Assembly: GCA_013002865.1 (NCBI GenBank)
Contig: JABDLU010000207.1
Coordinates: 1 to 48,593 of the forward strand
DNA from: Acidimicrobiia bacterium
GTDB lineage: Bacteria; Actinomycetota; Acidimicrobiia; Spongiisociales; SHLN01
Length of the DNA stretch: 48,593 bases
Direction: 5' to 3'
How positions within the stretch are numbered: the stretch's first letter is position 1; each line of letters opens with the position of its first letter. The notes below the pieces were generated by a model. It made no database searches, was not told where the DNA came from, and saw only the letters and a program-made list of their open reading frames with translations. Below, in pieces: positions 12,283 to 35,878 of the stretch. The position numbers were made by a program, and so were the translations under genes.

Positions 12283-12300
12283 GGGAGGAGGGTAACGGCC

Positions 12301-12391
12301 GGGCACCGGGCATCAGGCACCGGGCATCAGGCATCAGGCATCAGGCATCAGGCAGAGTTGCACGTTGCAAGTTCCAGGTTGCAAGCCAGAG
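12301..12391. repeat. Heptad array F
   Basis: Thirteen in-phase units: gggcacc gggcatc aggcacc gggcatc, then aggcatc three times, aggcaga, gttgcac gttgcaa gttccag gttgcaa gccagag. The unit family switches from ggcatca to gttgca without losing phase and ends in the GCCAGAG word. Confidence 0.9.
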
Positions 12392-12479: not shown

Positions 12480-12577
12480 TTAGCCGGCGACTGGCGACCG
12501 GCTATCGGCTGTCGGTCAGAGGGTCCGCTGGGGTTTGGCCGTTGACCGGCGACCGGTGACCGGCGACCGGCGACCTA
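12480..12577. repeat. Heptad array G overlapping the Fe-S carrier stop
   Basis: Fourteen units in phase, including gcgactg gcgaccg gctatcg gctgtcg and cgaccgg tgaccgg cgaccgg cgaccta. The final unit contains the stop codon of the minus-strand gene ending at 12575. Confidence 0.85.
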
Positions 12578-24679: not shown

Positions 24680-24772
24680 GGTCGGTGGTCGGTGGTCAGT
24701 GGTCGGTGGTCAATGACCGGACGGGGAGGATCTGGTTCTGGCCGTTGACAGTCGACCGTTGACCGTTGACGC
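24680..24772. repeat. Heptad array H
   Basis: ggtcggt ggtcggt ggtcagt ggtcggt ggtcaat, then after a short spacer ctggccg ttgacag tcgaccg ttgaccg ttgacgc, all period 7. It ends 3 nt before the nfeD stop. The whole 24605-24774 spacer otherwise holds only the whiB leader. Confidence 0.85.
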
Positions 24773-26040: not shown

Positions 26041-26560
26041 CCCAGAATGTTACGGCGGCAAAGGGATTCGTGGGAGGGGGGGAGGTGGAACTTGGAACTC
26101 CAACCGATAGCACGGGAACGCGCTCTCACCCCCCTCCTAGCCTCCCCCACCGAAGGCGGGGGAGGAACCAGAAACGCCCGCCTCGCAAACGATGCCGAGA
26201 GGAATCACCAGTGGAGGCGGAGTGGGGCGGAGGGAACGACGCAGACAGGAGCACGGGAACGCGCTTTCACCCCCCTCCTGGCCTCCCCCACTGCGTGGGG
26301 GAGGAAGAACAAACGCCGTGCTCGCAGACAATGCCGAGAACGATCACCGCTGGAGGCGGAGCTTGGCGGAGAGAACGGCCTAAACAAGAACACGGGAACG
26401 CGCCTAGCAACCCGCAGGGTTGCCCACCCCCCTCCTAGCCTCCCCCACCTTCGGCGGGGGAGGAACCTGAAACGCCTGCCTCTCAAACGATGCCGAGAAC
26501 GATCACTGTTGGAGGCGGAGCTTGGCGGTAGGCACGACGCAAACAGCGAGGCGTTCGAGT
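26041..26560. repeat. Tandem block of ~140-nt repeat units
   Basis: Three direct copies start at 26111, 26252 and 26391, each beginning CACGGGAACGCGC. Each continues with the CCTCCCCCACC..GGGGGAGG hairpin, then A/C-rich sequence with an AATGCCGAGA or GATGCCGAGA core and GGAGGCGGAG. Unit lengths are about 141, 139 and 155 nt. The third carries an extra GCAACCCGCAGGGTTGC hairpin, which is also in the solitary copies at 3297 and 11783. The ORFs crossing this block are repeat translations. Confidence 0.9.
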
Positions 26561-26595
26561 GCCGGCGACGGGTGACCGGCGACCGGCGACCGGAC
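26561..26595. repeat. Heptad array I
   Basis: Five in-phase units, gccggcg acgggtg accggcg accggcg accggac, ending 12 nt before the start of the receiver-domain gene. Confidence 0.75.
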
Positions 26596-30102: not shown

Positions 30103-31119
30103 TTACGCGTAGCGGGTCGGAATGGGGCGGGACGTGTTCTCCCAGCTCAGCGCCCGGCGGATCGGAGTCACGGTGCGCTCCTCGACCGCTTCGGTCAGTC
30201 CCCCATCGACGACCTTCAGCACAACGGGATGGACGACCGCCGTCGAGTCGCCCTCTTCGGCGGGGTGGTCGGTCAGGCGGCCCAGCCGGGTGAACATGCG
30301 CTTGTTGCGCCACGGATCGGCCACGAGCTCTTCGAGCAGCGGACCGGATCCCGGGTAGAGCATCTCGATGCAGCGGACCAGACCGCGCACCGCCGCGGCC
30401 TGCCAGCGGCGGGCATCGACGCTGGTAAGCGACCGGGCGACGGAGTCGGGGTGAAGCTCGACCAGGTGCGACCGGCGGTCACCTCCCGCATAGGCGGCAG
30501 ATCCGAGCTCCTCGGCTCCCACCGTGGTCTGACCAACGACGACGATGGTGTCCCTGGCGGCGTCGAGTGAACGATCGGTTCCCCACCCGATCACGATGAC
30601 GTCCGACAGCGCCAGGCCGATCTCGGCCAGGGCAAGGCGCTGGGCTTCGAGGTAGGGGTCGCAGGCCCCTGCGACGAGACCGACGGCGCTGGCGGTGACG
30701 GACGGAACCGGCCCACCGAACCTGTCCTGCACGAGGGTCCACGGCTGGCCGGTTCCATCCCGGGCCACGACCCACAACACCAGCTCGACGGTCTCCCCGG
30801 GGCGGTAGCGGGCTGCCAGCCGCTGGACGATTTGGCGGGGACGGGCGTCGAGCACCTCGCTCACCGAGCGGTAGGGCAGTCGCTCGCCGGCGAACAGCCA
30901 GCTGGTGCGCGGGTGCGGCGCGGGCTGGTCGACGGTGCGATCGGCGTGCCGGCGCAGGCTGGCTCCAACCGCGAACGCCGCTGCCAGCGCAGCCAGCCAG
31001 CTCCAGAACCAGAGCAGGACCACCCCGAGAGCCACCAGTAGGGCAATACCGGCGGTTGCGGTCGGTATGCGTCGGACCCCCCACAGCCTGACCCCGGTCA
31101 GCAGGTTCTCACGTATCAC
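30103..31119 (-). CDS. Two-helix membrane protein, paralog A of the envelope cluster
   Basis: 338 aa from the GTG at 31119, which has AAGGAG 7 nt upstream; the track starts 21 codons earlier. Two adjacent N-terminal hydrophobic helices (about 20-52, ALLVALGVVLLWFWSWLAALAAAFAVGA) precede a soluble domain of about 280 residues. It aligns by eye with the protein at 31675-32592: DVIVIGWGTDRSLDAARDTIVV against FDVLAWGNERTQDGSRQVLV, and VADPWRNKRMFTRL against RARWRDKAMFARV. No known family is recognised. Last gene of a five-gene minus-strand cluster ending 43 nt before the tRNA gene. Confidence 0.75.
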   Translation of the reverse strand: MIRENLLTGVRLWGVRRIPTATAGIALLVALGVVLLWFWSWLAALAAAFAVGASLRRHADRTVDQPAPHPRTSWLFAGERLPYRSVSEVLDARPRQIVQRLAARYRPGETVELVLWVVARDGTGQPWTLVQDRFGGPVPSVTASAVGLVAGACDPYLEAQRLALAEIGLALSDVIVIGWGTDRSLDAARDTIVVVGQTTVGAEELGSAAYAGGDRRSHLVELHPDSVARSLTSVDARRWQAAAVRGLVRCIEMLYPGSGPLLEELVADPWRNKRMFTRLGRLTDHPAEEGDSTAVVHPVVLKVVDGGLTEAVEERTVTPIRRALSWENTSRPIPTRYA

Positions 31120-31245
31120 CTGTGTGCTCCTTCGAACGTTCCTCGTATCAGCCCGAAGGACACACTCGGTGGTCCTCTGCAAGCAGAATACCGCACAGGG
31201 TGGTTGTTTGCACGCGCGAACTGACTAGTCCCCGGGCGGAAGTGC

Positions 31246-31635
31246 CTAGATCAAGTAGAGGAGCTCGTGACGTTCCTTGTCGGATTCCGACGGCCACGAC
31301 AGGCCAAGTCCGGCCAGCGCAAACCCGCCACCGACGAGCGTCACCCACCAGGGGCCCAGGGTCAAGGCAACCACGAACCCGATCAGGGCTGCGCCCTCGG
31401 CCAGCGCCAGCTTGACGACGGCGACCCGCCCGTAAGCGGCCGCATCGCCCGGCGAGACCGGATAGTTCCTGACCCAGGCAATTGCTCCAAGGGCGGCGAG
31501 GCCGGCGAGACCGACGAGAACGATCGCCAGGGCAGGCGAGTCGTTCGAGGAAGCGGAGGTGAACGCCACGGCCGCCACGACGACGATCACCGCCAGCATC
31601 GAGAAGGCGAGAAGCCGAACCGTGCGAAGATCCAT
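31246..31635 (-). CDS. Four-helix membrane protein
   Basis: 129 aa from the ATG at 31635 (MDLRTVRLLAF); the track adds 12 codons. Four predicted transmembrane segments: RLLAFSMLAVIVVVAAVAF, LAIVLVGLAGLAALGAIAWV, LALAEGAALIGFVVALTLG and WWVTLVGGGFALAGLGL. A short charged tail (SESDKERHELLYLI) follows. No family recognised. It lies between paralogs A and B in the cluster; the gap to paralog B is 39 nt, and the 126-nt gap to paralog A contains only the AAGGAG site and leader. Confidence 0.7.
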   Translation of the reverse strand: MDLRTVRLLAFSMLAVIVVVAAVAFTSASSNDSPALAIVLVGLAGLAALGAIAWVRNYPVSPGDAAAYGRVAVVKLALAEGAALIGFVVALTLGPWWVTLVGGGFALAGLGLSWPSESDKERHELLYLI

Positions 31636-31674
31636 AGCGGGCAGCGTATCCGTCACCCCGGGAGCCGACAACGA

Positions 31675-32592
31675 TCAGCCGTCGGCAGCCAGCACCCGGC
31701 CGGTGATCTGGGCGGTCCCGCGCTCGACACGGGCAAACATGGCCTTGTCACGCCAGCGGGCCCGGACCCGGGCCTCCAGCGCGGTCCACGACCCCGGCTC
31801 GGCTTGCTCGAGCAACTCCAGCAAGCCATACAGGGCGCCGCCCCGCCAGCTCGCCGGGTCTCCCCACGCCAGGGCATCGGCAACACATTCGACGCTCAGG
31901 GACACGGGATGGGAGGTGCGTCCGGCGGAATCATCGTCGGTGAGCGCTACGAGCCGTTCGGCCGGCATCGACGTCCGGGCGCTGGCGACGAGAACCTGGC
32001 GGCTCCCGTCCTGCGTCCGTTCATTCCCCCAGGCGAGAACATCAAAGCGGGTGATCGGCACCTCCCACTGCTCGGTGACGAGCCGAAGGCCAGCCCCGAA
32101 CAGGTTGTCGAGGTCGGCGAGATCGAGGACGCCCTCGAGAGAGCTCGACCACAGCCTCCGGTCGGGAAGGCTCTCGACGATGGTCGAATCCCGGCCGGCT
32201 TCGTCGCTGGCGACGAGCCATACCTCGAGGGCTATTGGGTTGGTGGCCCGGGCGAGTTCGCCGGCGATGGCCGCCCGCATGTCGCGGTAGGTGTTGGGCC
32301 CGGCGTCACCGGCCATCTGGAACCCGAGGTCGGCTCCGGCAAATCGCAGCTCCGGCGCCGCTCGCCACGGCGGTCGGCGGACCATGAAGCGGGACCAGAG
32401 TGCCGCGGCCGGCCGGGCCAGGAGGATGCCGATGGCGATCAGCGCTGCTCCCCGACCGAGGAGGGATAGGTCGACGTCGCCGACCAGCCGCAGCGCACCC
32501 ACAGCTGTCGCAGCGAGCACAGCGGCGGCTACCAACCGGTCAACCCGCAACCGTCGCAAACTCCACCCCATACGCCGGAGACGGCGTTTCAC
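31675..32592 (-). CDS. Two-helix membrane protein, paralog B of the envelope cluster
   Basis: 305 aa, GTG start with GAGGAGG upstream. A basic N-terminus (MKRRLRRMGWSLRRLRVDR) leads into two hydrophobic helices (about 20-60), and a soluble domain follows, the same topology as paralog A. Shared elements with A include the W-G-N/T-x-R-x-x-D motif, a SHPVSLSVECVADALAWGD/SHLVELHPDSVARSLTSVD block and the final WRDKAMFARVERGTAQ. Paralog A is longer mainly in the N-terminal part and the C-terminal tail. Family not recognised. An array of heptads separates it from the LysM gene upstream. Confidence 0.75.
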   Translation of the reverse strand: MKRRLRRMGWSLRRLRVDRLVAAAVLAATAVGALRLVGDVDLSLLGRGAALIAIGILLARPAAALWSRFMVRRPPWRAAPELRFAGADLGFQMAGDAGPNTYRDMRAAIAGELARATNPIALEVWLVASDEAGRDSTIVESLPDRRLWSSSLEGVLDLADLDNLFGAGLRLVTEQWEVPITRFDVLAWGNERTQDGSRQVLVASARTSMPAERLVALTDDDSAGRTSHPVSLSVECVADALAWGDPASWRGGALYGLLELLEQAEPGSWTALEARVRARWRDKAMFARVERGTAQITGRVLAADG

Positions 32593-32765
32593 ACGATCCT
32601 CCTCGTTAACCCTGCTCGCCAGCGTAGCGACGACTTTCGCGGTCTGCAGAGCCGGTCGCCCGTCCCCCGTCCCCGGTCGCCCGTCCCCCGACGCCCGACG
32701 CCCGACGCCCGTCCCCCGTCGCCGGTCCCCCGACGCCCGTCGCCCCCACTGCTGGGGACGGGGGT
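32593..32765. repeat. Heptad array J region between LysM gene and paralog B
   Basis: The gap holds the paralog B leader and the most regular array of the window at 32654-32744: thirteen units in unbroken phase drawn from cgtcccc, cgacgcc, ggtcgcc, cgtcgcc and ggtcccc. Changes are confined mostly to positions 1, 3 and 5 of the unit. It is positioned inside an apparent operon, so it would be transcribed. Confidence 0.9.
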
Positions 32766-33512
32766 CTACCCGACGGGCGGCAGGGTGAGGGTCTCGCCGG
32801 GGTAGATGAGGTCGGGGTTGCCGGAGCGGATGGTCGACCGGTTGGCGTCGATGACCGTGACCCAGTAGCGGGCCACCTCACGATCATCGAAATTGGTTCG
32901 CCCCAGGACGCGCTCCAGGTGCTCCTCGGCCAGGCTCCACATGTGGTCGCCCCGCCGGACAGTCACGGTGTGAGCAACAGTGCCGTCCAGCTGCTCCTCG
33001 AACAGCAGGGTTTCGACGGGGTCAGGTTCAGGCCGTATCGGGAGATGGGGAGGAAGCACCGGCGATTCGTCGGGCCGCTCCGTCCCGGGCGGTCGTAGCT
33101 GGCCGTCCGGTCCGATATCCACCACCACCGTGGCGTCAGACGCCCCACCGGCAATCGCCGGGGCAACCGAGCCCGTGACCGCCGAAACGGCGATCGAGAT
33201 GGCGAGGGCCCGCTGGGTGAGGCGGCGGATGGCCGGGACGGTCACAATCCGTGCGGCCCGCATGAGCCCGGGACTACCACTGACCAGCGCACCGGCGTAG
33301 CCCGCCGTTGAGATGAGCAGCCAGTAGGCGATGGCGAGCGCCACCAGCAGCAGCACGGCAGCCACCACGTCTTCGTAAGGGCTCGAATCCAGCCACTGGC
33401 CGAAATCGGACCACTGCACAGCGAAGCCATCGAGGCGGGACAGTGAGTGGAGACCCGCCACCACAGCGACCTCGAGCATCAGGAGGCCGGTGAGGCGAAG
33501 CCGCTCACTCAT
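32766..33512 (-). CDS. Membrane protein with C-terminal LysM domain
   Basis: 248 aa from the ATG at 33512, overlapping the upstream gene stop in ATGAGTGA; the track extends 25 codons upstream. Three hydrophobic segments (about 5-24, 45-78 and 100-120) are followed by a Pro/Asp-rich linker (PVLPPHLPIRPEPDPVETL). A LysM domain lies at about 175-248: HTVTVRRGDHMWSLAEEHL, then WVTVIDANRSTIRSGNPDLIYPGETLTLP. LysM binds the glycan of peptidoglycan, so the cluster probably acts at the cell wall. Membrane protein plus LysM is common in actinobacterial secretion or conjugation-like loci. Confidence 0.85.
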   Translation of the reverse strand: MSERLRLTGLLMLEVAVVAGLHSLSRLDGFAVQWSDFGQWLDSSPYEDVVAAVLLLVALAIAYWLLISTAGYAGALVSGSPGLMRAARIVTVPAIRRLTQRALAISIAVSAVTGSVAPAIAGGASDATVVVDIGPDGQLRPPGTERPDESPVLPPHLPIRPEPDPVETLLFEEQLDGTVAHTVTVRRGDHMWSLAEEHLERVLGRTNFDDREVARYWVTVIDANRSTIRSGNPDLIYPGETLTLPPVG

Positions 33513-34206
33513 CGGTCGAGGGGCTGGTATTAGTGACGCCACCGGGTCGAGCTTCGCCACGTCGAGCATTCGGAGATACCCAACCACCCCCGTTCCGCAT
33601 CACCTCCTCCGGCGGCCTACGGATGGTCGGTGGGTCGGTGCTCGTGAGCTCGACCCGGTAGTACGCAAGGCCCGGGTCACCATATCCGCCCTCGATCCGG
33701 CGCAGCACCTGCGCTGCTACCACGACGGTCCAGCCATTCTCCAATCGGCCAACCTCGATGGCTGCCACGTTCTGCACATAGAGGTCACCCGGGAGGGCTC
33801 CCGGGAGTGACCCTCCCGTGAATGGCTCGAGCATCTGATCGGTTCCGTCCCCGGAGTCACCGAGAAGGTTCGAAACGACGATCTCCGCCACACCAGCCGC
33901 CGCAATCGAGCCGACCGGTTCCGGTTCGGCTGGGGACGCCGGGTCAACCGGCGCCGCCCGGGCAAGGAACACCCAGATGCCGCAGGCGACCACGGCCAGG
34001 AGAACCAGAACGGTGATGGGCCGTGTGCCCCCGACGGGAAACCGCCGGTTTGGGGGCGGGTCGGAAACACGGAGGGCGGACCTCAGGCGGGCAACTGCTG
34101 CCTCACCGGGGGTTGCTCTGCCTTCGCCGCGCGATGCCCTGATTCCCGCATAGCCTGCATCGGCGTCCCGTTGGGTCCTCTGTCCCGCTAGGTAGGCGAT
34201 CAACAT
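33505..34206 (-). CDS. Single-pass membrane protein, TcpC-like layout
   Basis: 233 aa, ATG start. A cytoplasmic N-terminus of about 60 residues is followed by one helix (RPITVLVLLAVVACGIWVFLA) and an extracytoplasmic domain of about 140 residues (SIAAAGVAEIVVSNLLGDSG, GDLYVQNVAAIEVGRLENGWTVVVAAQVLRRIEGG, AYYRVEL). This resembles one module of TcpC-type proteins and the protein at 146-937. It is the first gene of the envelope cluster; the -10 box lies only 9 nt before the ATG, so the mRNA may be leaderless. Confidence 0.65.
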   Translation of the reverse strand: MLIAYLAGQRTQRDADAGYAGIRASRGEGRATPGEAAVARLRSALRVSDPPPNRRFPVGGTRPITVLVLLAVVACGIWVFLARAAPVDPASPAEPEPVGSIAAAGVAEIVVSNLLGDSGDGTDQMLEPFTGGSLPGALPGDLYVQNVAAIEVGRLENGWTVVVAAQVLRRIEGGYGDPGLAYYRVELTSTDPPTIRRPPEEVMRNGGGWVSPNARRGEARPGGVTNTSPSTDE

Positions 34207-34347: not shown

Positions 34348-34527
34348 CTAATCGAAGAAGTGGTGGGCGGCTCCGCCGCCCCCGGAAAGCGGTGCACTCG
34401 TCGAGCCGGTGTTGACCGGGGGGACCGGAGCCGGCTCGCCGGCGCTGTGGCCGGAATTGATTCCGAGAGCGATGGCGAGCAGCGATGCGGCCAGCAGGGC
34501 AGCGACGGATGGTTGGCGGTGACGCAT
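34348..34527 (-). CDS. Small secreted peptide, not in ORF track
   Basis: 59 aa, read directly: MRHRQPSVAALLAASLLAIA, then a short mature part rich in Gly, Pro, Ser and Ala ending GGGGAAHHFFD. The ATG at 34527 has a near-perfect AAAGGAGGAACCC ribosome site. The N-terminus is a classical signal peptide (basic lead, hydrophobic core, small residues before the expected cleavage). No Cys, so not a lipoprotein. Function unknown. Divergent from the next small gene across about 110 nt, and located immediately upstream of the promoter of the envelope cluster on the same strand. Confidence 0.75.
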   Translation of the reverse strand: MRHRQPSVAALLAASLLAIALGINSGHSAGEPAPVPPVNTGSTSAPLSGGGGAAHHFFD

Positions 34528-34640
34528 GGGTTCCTCCTTTCACGACAAGAGGGCCAGACCGCCGCGGAAATACGCGCAATTGCAGGTATCAGGGGGTGGT
34601 CGCACTGCTCTAGTTCCTGAAGCAACCCAGGGAGGGAACC

Positions 34641-34799
34641 ATGTACGTGCGACCACAGGACCTGAAAGCCCTCGCCATCCACCGATCCAGCAGCTACCGG
34701 CCCGCCAGAGAGCGGTCGCAATTCAGACGAATACGATCCGTCTGGCGCCAGCTGGCAGAGGCATGGAACGTTCGGCCCCGGCCACGGCTTTCCCACTGA
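34641..34799 (+). CDS. Small Arg-rich protein, not in ORF track
   Basis: 52 aa, read directly: begins MYVRPQDLKALAIHRSSSY and ends AEAWNVRPRPRLSH. The ATG has AGGGAGGGAACC directly upstream. The middle is strongly basic with several Arg residues and a WRQLAEAW helix, suggesting nucleic-acid or membrane contact. No family recognised. A strong hairpin 13 nt after the stop supports a real transcription unit. It is divergent from the small secreted-peptide gene. Confidence 0.6.
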   Translation: MYVRPQDLKALAIHRSSSYRPARERSQFRRIRSVWRQLAEAWNVRPRPRLSH

Positions 34800-34811
34800 A
34801 TCTGCACGATT

Positions 34812-34842
34812 GAATGAGCCCGGGAAGTTCCCGGGCTCATTC
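34812..34842. terminator. Perfect 15-bp hairpin after the small Arg-rich gene
   Basis: GAATGAGCCCGGGAA g TTCCCGGGCTCATTC: 15 pairable bases around one central base (effective loop three or more). There is no T-run on either side; A/T-rich stem ends suggest a bidirectional terminator for the converging units. Confidence 0.8.
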
Positions 34843-34875
34843 GCGAGCGGGCTAGCGGGGTGGTCACCCCGCGAC

Positions 34876-34906
34876 AAAGCGCCCCGTCTCCGAGATGAGG
34901 CGCTTT
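34876..34906 (-). terminator. Hairpin after the 89-aa gene
   Basis: Outer stem AAAGCGCC/GGCGCTTT with an inner TCTC c GAGA stem, located 9 nt after the minus-strand stop at 34915. The minus-strand arm ends in CTTT. Likely terminator of the methyltransferase/89-aa unit. Confidence 0.7.
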
Positions 34907-34914
34907 GGCTCGGC

Positions 34915-35184
34915 TTAGCTTCCGGTGGTCGGCAATGCGGCGAGGTCGCGCATCACCTCCGCTGCGAACAGCATGCGGTCACGGTGGTCCCGCACGCTTT
35001 CCAGCTCGGCTGCTCGCTCGCGGCGCATATCGAGCACCCGGTGGAGGTAGTCGGCAAAGTCGGGTTCGTCGGTGCGAACGGCCAGCTCCCACAGCGTGAG
35101 CCCACACAGGTACTCGAGTTCGGCGTCAGCGAGATCGGCGGCGGCGTCCGGTCCCCGGTCGGTGTCGATTCGGAATTCGCTCAT
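34915..35184 (-). CDS. Hypothetical protein, 89 aa
   Basis: The ATG at 35184 has a textbook AAGGAGGAAACG ribosome site; the longer track ORF is antisense-like. The protein is acidic and largely helical: TDRGPDAAADLADAELEYLCGLTLWELAVRTDEPDF, then LHRVLDMRRERAAELESVRDHRDRMLFAAEVMRDLAA. No family recognised. Its first 59 nt overlap the end of the upstream methyltransferase ORF in another frame, and a hairpin terminator follows. The strong ribosome site makes the gene convincing despite the overlap. Confidence 0.75.
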   Translation of the reverse strand: MSEFRIDTDRGPDAAADLADAELEYLCGLTLWELAVRTDEPDFADYLHRVLDMRRERAAELESVRDHRDRMLFAAEVMRDLAALPTTGS

Positions 35185-35878
35185 CGTTTCCTCCTTCGAG
35201 GAGAAGAGCGCCGTGGGGCGGCCGTGATACCTCATTGATGAGACGTTTTCGCCCCGGCGGGCGGGTCCGCCCGAAGATGAAGAAGTCGGACCACGAGGTG
35301 TCGATCCGGCCGGATTGATACGGATACCGGTTCGGAATGCGCCGCAGCAGGTCCCACGCCGGAGCCCGGTCGGCGACCCAGGTGGTGAAGCGCCGGTGCC
35401 GCACCTCGGGCCATTCGGTCTCGTCATCCCGATCACTTGAATAGACGACTACCAGCCGGCGGGCCGCCCCGAAGAGATCGGTCATGTAGCGGTCGTAGAC
35501 ATCGTCCTCGAGCAAGTGGTATATGACATCGAGCGACACGGACAGATCGGCCCGCTCCGCGATCAAGTCCCCGGTCTCGTACGCACGGAAGTGCTTGGAG
35601 GCGTCATTTCCGAACCGTTCGCGACACAACTCGACCGCCGTCGGGGACGTGTCGAGGCCGAGATAGTTCGGGTAGTCGATGAGGGCGAGCTGCGAACCGT
35701 CTCCACAGCCGAACTCGATAGCCGAGCGGACTCCACATTCGGCGATGAGGCGATTGAGGACCTCGGCCTTGAAGGAACTGAGCCGCCCGACGCTGCCGGT
35801 GCCGCTGGTTCCGCCCGTCGCGTAGACGCCGTCCCAGAACTGGGCGCTGGAGGTGAGGGTGGAAGTACGATCGGCCAT
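35126..35878 (-). CDS. Class I SAM-dependent methyltransferase
   Basis: 250 aa, ATG start. N-terminal QFWDGVYATGGTSGTGSVGRL, motif I SAIEFGCGDGSQLALI (about 54-68), acidic motif II LGLDTSPTAVELCRERFG, and LSVSLDVIYHLLEDDVYDRYM (motif IV and following). The final FFIFGRT strand looks like the natural domain end, while the last ~35 residues (KRLINEVSRPPHGALLLEGG, then an Arg-rich run) lie partly in the overlap with the 89-aa gene and look non-conserved. The stop may thus be read-through of ancestral non-coding sequence. Substrate unknown. Divergent from tag across 38 nt. Confidence 0.82.
   Translation of the reverse strand: MADRTSTLTSSAQFWDGVYATGGTSGTGSVGRLSSFKAEVLNRLIAECGVRSAIEFGCGDGSQLALIDYPNYLGLDTSPTAVELCRERFGNDASKHFRAYETGDLIAERADLSVSLDVIYHLLEDDVYDRYMTDLFGAARRLVVVYSSDRDDETEWPEVRHRRFTTWVADRAPAWDLLRRIPNRYPYQSGRIDTSWSDFFIFGRTRPPGRKRLINEVSRPPHGALLLEGGNDERIPNRHRPGTGRRRRSR

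What the first reader, a model, noticed from the sequence alone, without database searches (positions are those of the whole stretch)
30103..34206. Uncharacterised five-gene envelope cluster with two paralogous membrane proteins
Order of transcription: TcpC-like anchor, LysM membrane protein, paralog B, four-helix protein, paralog A. A and B have the same two-helix start and share WG-x-x-R-x-x-D, SH-x-V..S/D-x-V-A and WR-x-K-x-MF-x-R blocks, so they arose by duplication. First two genes are coupled (ATGAGTGA). A wall-binding LysM with TcpC-like and paired membrane subunits suggests a cell-envelope channel or secretion apparatus. No ATPase is visible.
Basis: partly seen in the sequence, partly recalled or inferred. 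Interest (0 to 1): 0.7.

Follow-up and report, generated by a model that had tools for sequence, protein, structure and literature searches.

The report
Leftover envelope genes of lost secretion system
Five membrane and cell-wall genes in an uncultured Acidimicrobiia bacterium appear to be what remains of a type VII-like protein secretion locus whose motor and cargo genes are still present in sister species; the two paralogs carry enzyme-like (Nudix-fold) domains that seem to have lost their catalytic residues.

Summary
The five genes and the A/B duplication are real (BLASTP E=1e-16). A is two membrane helices plus a cytosolic domain with a predicted Nudix fold (Foldseek probability 1.00; Z 13.3 to NUDT22). 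The catalytic Nudix box is degenerate in all ten A/B sequences, so A and B look like pseudo-Nudix proteins. In sister genome G003 (and, split over two contigs, G002) the locus also carries WXG100 proteins and a full-length EssC/EccC-type ATPase, divergent from TcpC-like / 739-residue protein / LysM / B / 4TM / A. G001 keeps one WXG100 and a truncated TcpC. The window genome has no full EccC match and no WXG100 match. TcpC-like genes of this type co-occur with EccC across Acidimicrobiia (9 of 10 genomes; Fisher p=3.5e-6, not phylogeny-corrected). A, B and 4TM were found only in the window's family; a single A/B-like gene also occurs in two genomes without T7SS matches. A is constrained; B has evolved about twice as fast in the window lineage. 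What A/B do is inferred, not shown.

The parts
33505..34206 (-). TcpC-like protein: one TM helix plus one NTF2-like/TcpC-type extracytoplasmic domain, 233 aa
   Evidence: Orthologs in G002, G003; family alignment A6; G073 ortholog passes PF12642 TpcC. No direct PF12642 hit for the window protein.
32766..33512 (-). LysM protein: about three TM helices, C-terminal extracytoplasmic LysM, 248 aa (ORF open from 33587)
   Evidence: LysM profiles weak but consistent; 53-55% identical orthologs; homologs beside EccC/WXG100 in other families.
32651..32745 (.). Heptamer tandem array in the gap between LysM and B
   Evidence: Tandem Repeats Finder
31675..32592 (-). Paralog B: 2 TM plus pseudo-Nudix domain, 305 aa; fast-evolving in this lineage
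   Evidence: BLASTP to A E=1e-16; alignment A1; tree branch 0.85 vs 0.15-0.33 in sisters.
31246..31635 (-). Four-TM membrane protein, 129 aa
   Evidence: 40-49% identical orthologs in three same-genus genomes; no Pfam family.
30103..31119 (-). Paralog A: 2 TM plus cytosolic pseudo-Nudix domain, 338 aa
   Evidence: AlphaFold model, Foldseek and VIA matches to Nudix proteins; Nudix box degenerate.
34348..35878 (-). Replacement segment (small exported peptide ORF 34348-34527, ORF overlapping 34915-35436, methyltransferase 35126-35878) where G003 has WXG100 genes and EccC
   Evidence: tblastn finds no EccC, WXG100 or 739-aa relic at the locus.

Best explanation
The five genes are the envelope half of a type VII-like secretion locus that has lost its motor and cargo. 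In sister species the same chromosomal site carries EccC/EssC-type ATPase and WXG100 genes divergent from TcpC-like, a 739-aa protein, LysM, B, 4TM and A. A and B are paralogous membrane proteins with two helices and a cytosolic Nudix-fold domain without the catalytic box. Most likely they formed (hetero)oligomers acting as non-catalytic scaffold or ligand-sensing subunits on the cytosolic face, next to the ATPase, while the LysM protein anchors to peptidoglycan and the TcpC-like protein forms the outer-facing domain. In the window genome the module cannot run as a T7SS; A, and less strictly the rest, is kept for a residual envelope or sensing role. Shown: gene order, homology, absence of EccC/WXG100 matches in this assembly. 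Predicted: Nudix fold, topology. Inferred: loss rather than never gained, oligomerisation, scaffold/sensor role.
For: EccC with WXG100s and the envelope genes on one contig in G003; in G002 on two contigs whose ends fit the same layout. EccC matches T7 EssC at E=1e-154. G001 keeps WXG100, a truncated TcpC reading frame and a possible 10-residue relic of the 739-aa protein's C-terminus just upstream of LysM. LysM plus TcpC beside EccC/WXG100 in G073, G010, G017 and beside EccC in G024; LysM beside EccC in G018, G011. TcpC/EccC co-occurrence in 9 of 10 strong TcpC genomes. Nudix fold: Foldseek prob 1.00, VIA Z 13.3 to NUDT22 over 161 residues at 2.9 A, Z 13.2 to TIRR. REUxEE absent in all ten A/B sequences. 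Arg-rich ends flanking both helices of A place the domain in the cytosol. A: dN/dS about 0.25 vs sisters and no acceleration; B accelerated.
Against: A/B and 4TM were found only in the window's family. A single A/B-like gene occurs beside asd in G005 and G007, which show no full EccC or WXG100 match, so A/B need not be tied to T7SS. LysM homologs occur at the prs locus in genomes without an EccC match (G016, G117). No EccB or YukD/EccD found in the T7SS-bearing genomes (the EccB control rang nowhere). The window genome is 90% complete, so EccC elsewhere is not fully excluded. The model rests on ten sequences. The G001 relic is only 10 residues (E=0.18).
Confidence: 0.55

Rival explanations
1. 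A/B with the 4TM protein are an independent membrane signalling module: the Nudix-fold domain binds a nucleotide-type ligand and drives a response through the membrane helices, like the CBASS effector Cap16. The module merely sits beside T7SS genes in two relatives.
For: Single A/B-like gene near asd in G005/G007 without T7SS matches; retention without EccC in G000 and G001; Cap16 has TM helices plus a NUDIX domain (PMC10419184); very weak SLATT_1 hit for a 4TM ortholog (E=0.22).
Against: No PADLOC model matches at E<=5; no synthase gene recognised among the ORFs read nearby; the 4TM likeness in G005/G007 is not significant (E=0.38).
Confidence: 0.25
2. Remnant of a conjugative type IV system (TcpC/SCO6880/VirB4-type).
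For: TcpC is a conjugation family; G010 has several contigs where weaker TcpC-like matches share a contig with LysM matches in frames over 900 aa, plausibly conjugative.
Against: The close TcpC orthologs sit with EccC/WXG100, not VirB4; flanks are housekeeping genes syntenic in G001 and G003, and no integrase was recognised among the ORFs read.
Confidence: 0.07
3. The window lineage never had EccC, WXG100 and the 739-aa gene; these were added in the ancestor of G001-G003 at a pre-existing envelope cluster.
For: No relic of these genes at the window locus; B_G000 lies outside the other three B sequences (support 82/74).
Against: The TcpC/LysM pair goes with EccC in other families, implying an older association; B acceleration fits relaxed constraint.
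Confidence: 0.13

Closest known systems
Type VII secretion system (EssC/EccC + WXG100)
   Same: Relatives encode an EssC-like ATPase and WXG100 proteins beside the same envelope genes
   Different: Window genome shows neither; no EccB or EccD/YukD homologs were detected in relatives; instead LysM, TcpC-like and pseudo-Nudix membrane proteins
Cap16 (CBASS effector, TM + NUDIX)
   Same: TM helices followed by a Nudix-fold domain
   Different: No sequence match in PADLOC, paired paralogs, wall-protein neighbours, no cyclic-nucleotide synthase recognised nearby
TIRR/NUDT16L1 and NUDT22
   Same: Top structural matches (Z about 13); to my knowledge Nudix proteins with dead or atypical boxes
   Different: Eukaryotic and, to my knowledge, not membrane-anchored; 13-14% identity
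TcpC of conjugative transposons (PF12642)
   Same: TM anchor plus NTF2-like domain(s)
   Different: In the window genus only the first domain is kept; partner ATPase is of EccC type
EccE (mycobacterial ESX) and EssB (T7SSb)
   Same: From general knowledge: membrane component with a non-catalytic, enzyme-like cytosolic domain
   Different: EccE is glycosyltransferase-like and EssB a pseudokinase; A/B are Nudix-fold (no comparison run)

Membership tests
Nudix superfamily | Nudix fold | tested here: met
   By predicted model only: Foldseek prob 1.00, VIA Z 13.3, 161 residues, 2.9 A
Nudix superfamily | Catalytic box GX5EX7REUXEEXGU | tested here: not met
   REUxEE absent in all ten A/B sequences
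Nudix superfamily | Sequence profile PF00293 | tested here: inconclusive
   One of ten members at E=0.037
Type VII secretion system | EccC/EssC ATPase | tested here: not met
   Absent from the window assembly (only an FtsK-like match); full-length in G002, G003
Type VII secretion system | WXG100 proteins | tested here: not met
   None in G000; present in G001, G002, G003
Type VII secretion system | EccB (T7SSa) | tested here: inconclusive
   No hit in 14 genomes, but the control rang nowhere
Type VII secretion system | YukD/EccD ubiquitin-like domain | tested here: not met
   No PF08817 hit in 14 genomes; control B. subtilis rings
TcpC (PF12642) | Profile match | tested here: inconclusive
   Window protein has no hit; G073 ortholog passes the cut-off
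LysM proteins | LysM profile | tested here: inconclusive
   PF01476 E=0.025, below cut-off; NCBIfam LysM-type models 3e-4 and 7e-4; conserved VRRGDxxWxLxExHL...PDLIYPGE pattern
CBASS Cap16 | Match to known defence-protein models | tested here: not met
   No PADLOC match at E<=5
CBASS Cap16 | Adjacent CD-NTase | not tested
   No dedicated search; none recognised in the ORFs read
SCO6880/VirB4 conjugative system | VirB4/SCO6880 ATPase in the genome | not tested
   Not searched; none in the ORFs read at the locus

The most novel reading that the evidence does not exclude
Acidimicrobiia carry a minimal type VII secretion variant in which EssC-type ATPase and WXG100 cargo work without EccB/EccD/EccE, using a conjugation-derived TcpC-like protein, a LysM wall anchor and, in this family, a heterodimer of membrane pseudo-Nudix proteins as machine subunits.
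Probability: 0.3. Interest if true: 0.7.

Novelty: new variant of a known kind. Interest (0 to 1): 0.45.

Why it matters
If right, it extends type VII secretion to Acidimicrobiia with a different set of envelope parts (TcpC-like, LysM, pseudo-Nudix). It also offers a series of sister genomes (complete, truncated, ATPase-less) in which to see which parts are retained after motor and cargo go. A paper search for 'type VII secretion' with 'Acidimicrobiia' found none in the library held.

Tried and rejected
Pfam, NCBIfam and PADLOC on the window proteins: nothing beyond weak LysM. First hit in G036 (L007/L017) is an oligopeptidase-like ORF, rejected as chance. Class-wide weak A/B hits with E 3e-4 to 8e-3: the two read (L028, L032) were unrelated, the others match short stretches only. 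Single-sequence fold of the TcpC-like protein: pLDDT 49.6, uninformative. PDB sequence searches: nothing useful for either family. Homology of the 4TM protein to the small TM gene beside A/B in G005/G007: not significant. EccB search uninformative because its control failed. Papers joining T7SS and Nudix: none relevant. One class search for EccC failed for machine reasons and was repeated with fewer genomes.

Full report
What is there. Five minus-strand genes at 30103-34206 were confirmed. A and B align over 212 residues at 29% identity, E=1e-16. In a tree of ten sequences A and B are separate clades, with the single-copy genes of G005/G007 as a third.

What A and B are. No family model names them. 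The AlphaFold model of A (10-row alignment; most blocks of the soluble domain between pLDDT 73 and 96) finds Nudix proteins throughout its listed matches (Foldseek prob 1.00, E 5e-5). The second aligner gives Z 13.3 to NUDT22 and 13.2 to TIRR over 160-180 residues. One of ten sequences weakly matches PF00293. The box that carries catalysis is absent in all ten: A has R-L-A-L-A-E-I-G where REUxEExG is expected. B's fold is taken from its homology to A. Arg-rich stretches before TM1 and after TM2 put A's domain in the cytosol (sequence plus positive-inside rule).

The neighbourhood in relatives. Genus mates G003 (L012, L036) and G002 (L013, L042) have, between TcpC-like and LysM, a gene for a 739-residue protein with no Pfam match. 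G003 has, divergent from TcpC, a WXG100 gene (PF06013 over cut-off), a second WXG100-like gene and a 1380-residue EccC/EssC (T7 EssC model E=1e-154). In G002 these lie on another contig (C239) whose start fits the same order. G001 keeps WXG100, a truncated TcpC frame, a 10-residue match to the C-terminus of the 739-residue protein (weak on its own, but exactly where expected), LysM, B, 4TM and A. The window lies at the same chromosomal site (CNNM gene on one side, TagI-PrpB-Lhr on the other) but has a methyltransferase and small ORFs where EccC/WXG100 sit in G003. No EccC or WXG100 match was found in its assembly; completeness is 90%.

How general the link is. Full or partial EccC relatives occur in 42 of 198 Acidimicrobiia genomes. 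LysM and TcpC homologs lie beside EccC in G073, G010, G017 and G024, and LysM alone in G018 and G011. Of ten genomes with strong TcpC matches (E<=1e-39) nine have EccC, the exception being the window (Fisher p=3.5e-6; genomes are related, so the p-value overstates). In G012 and G019 the TcpC/LysM pair lies on a different contig from EccC. LysM homologs also occur at the prs locus without an EccC match, so LysM alone is not diagnostic. A/B were found in no genome outside the window's family (138 genomes of the order, 395 of the class).

Selection. A shows dN 0.27-0.35 against dS 1.1-1.4 with no excess on the window branch. B shows dN 0.46-0.53 from window to sisters against 0.24-0.28 among sisters, and its tree branch is 0.85 against 0.15-0.33. 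Flanking genes show only a 1.0-1.6-fold excess. This fits relaxed constraint on B after loss of the motor; dS is near saturation, so ratios are rough.

Mechanism. I propose an ATPase-less remnant of a type VII-like machine: LysM anchors in the wall, the TcpC-like domain faces outward, A/B present pseudo-Nudix domains at the cytosolic face. The scaffold/sensor role of A/B is inference by analogy with enzyme-like non-catalytic T7SS parts. The main rival is an independent ligand-sensing membrane module of Cap16 type (PMC10419184), supported by the single-copy gene in genomes without T7SS matches.

Verdict. The interest lies in the pseudo-Nudix membrane pair and in a variant T7SS locus with TcpC/LysM parts. 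In this genome itself the cluster is most likely a remnant.

Noticed in passing
32651-32745, 12299-12354, 12539-12575, 24680-24711, 26562-26593: GC-rich tandem arrays built on 7-bp units, dispersed in the window.
   Followed up: no
26109-26403: 139-bp tandem repeat, about two copies, between the NfeD-like and response-regulator-like genes.
   Followed up: no
34348-34527 (-): 59-residue ORF with good Shine-Dalgarno and signal-like N-terminus, Pro/Gly-rich tail; no Pfam match.
   Followed up: partly
L102, L103, L107, L108: A LysM membrane gene sits beside prs (and glmU) in several families of the order, with or without TcpC-like neighbour.
   Followed up: partly
G010 contigs C6, C14, C22: Weaker TcpC-like matches on the same contigs as paired LysM matches in frames over 900 aa; possible conjugative elements.
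   Followed up: no
L012:3380-5599, L013:10107-12326: Unclassified 739-residue protein between TcpC and LysM in two sister genomes; possible T7SS-linked protein, no Pfam match.
   Followed up: partly
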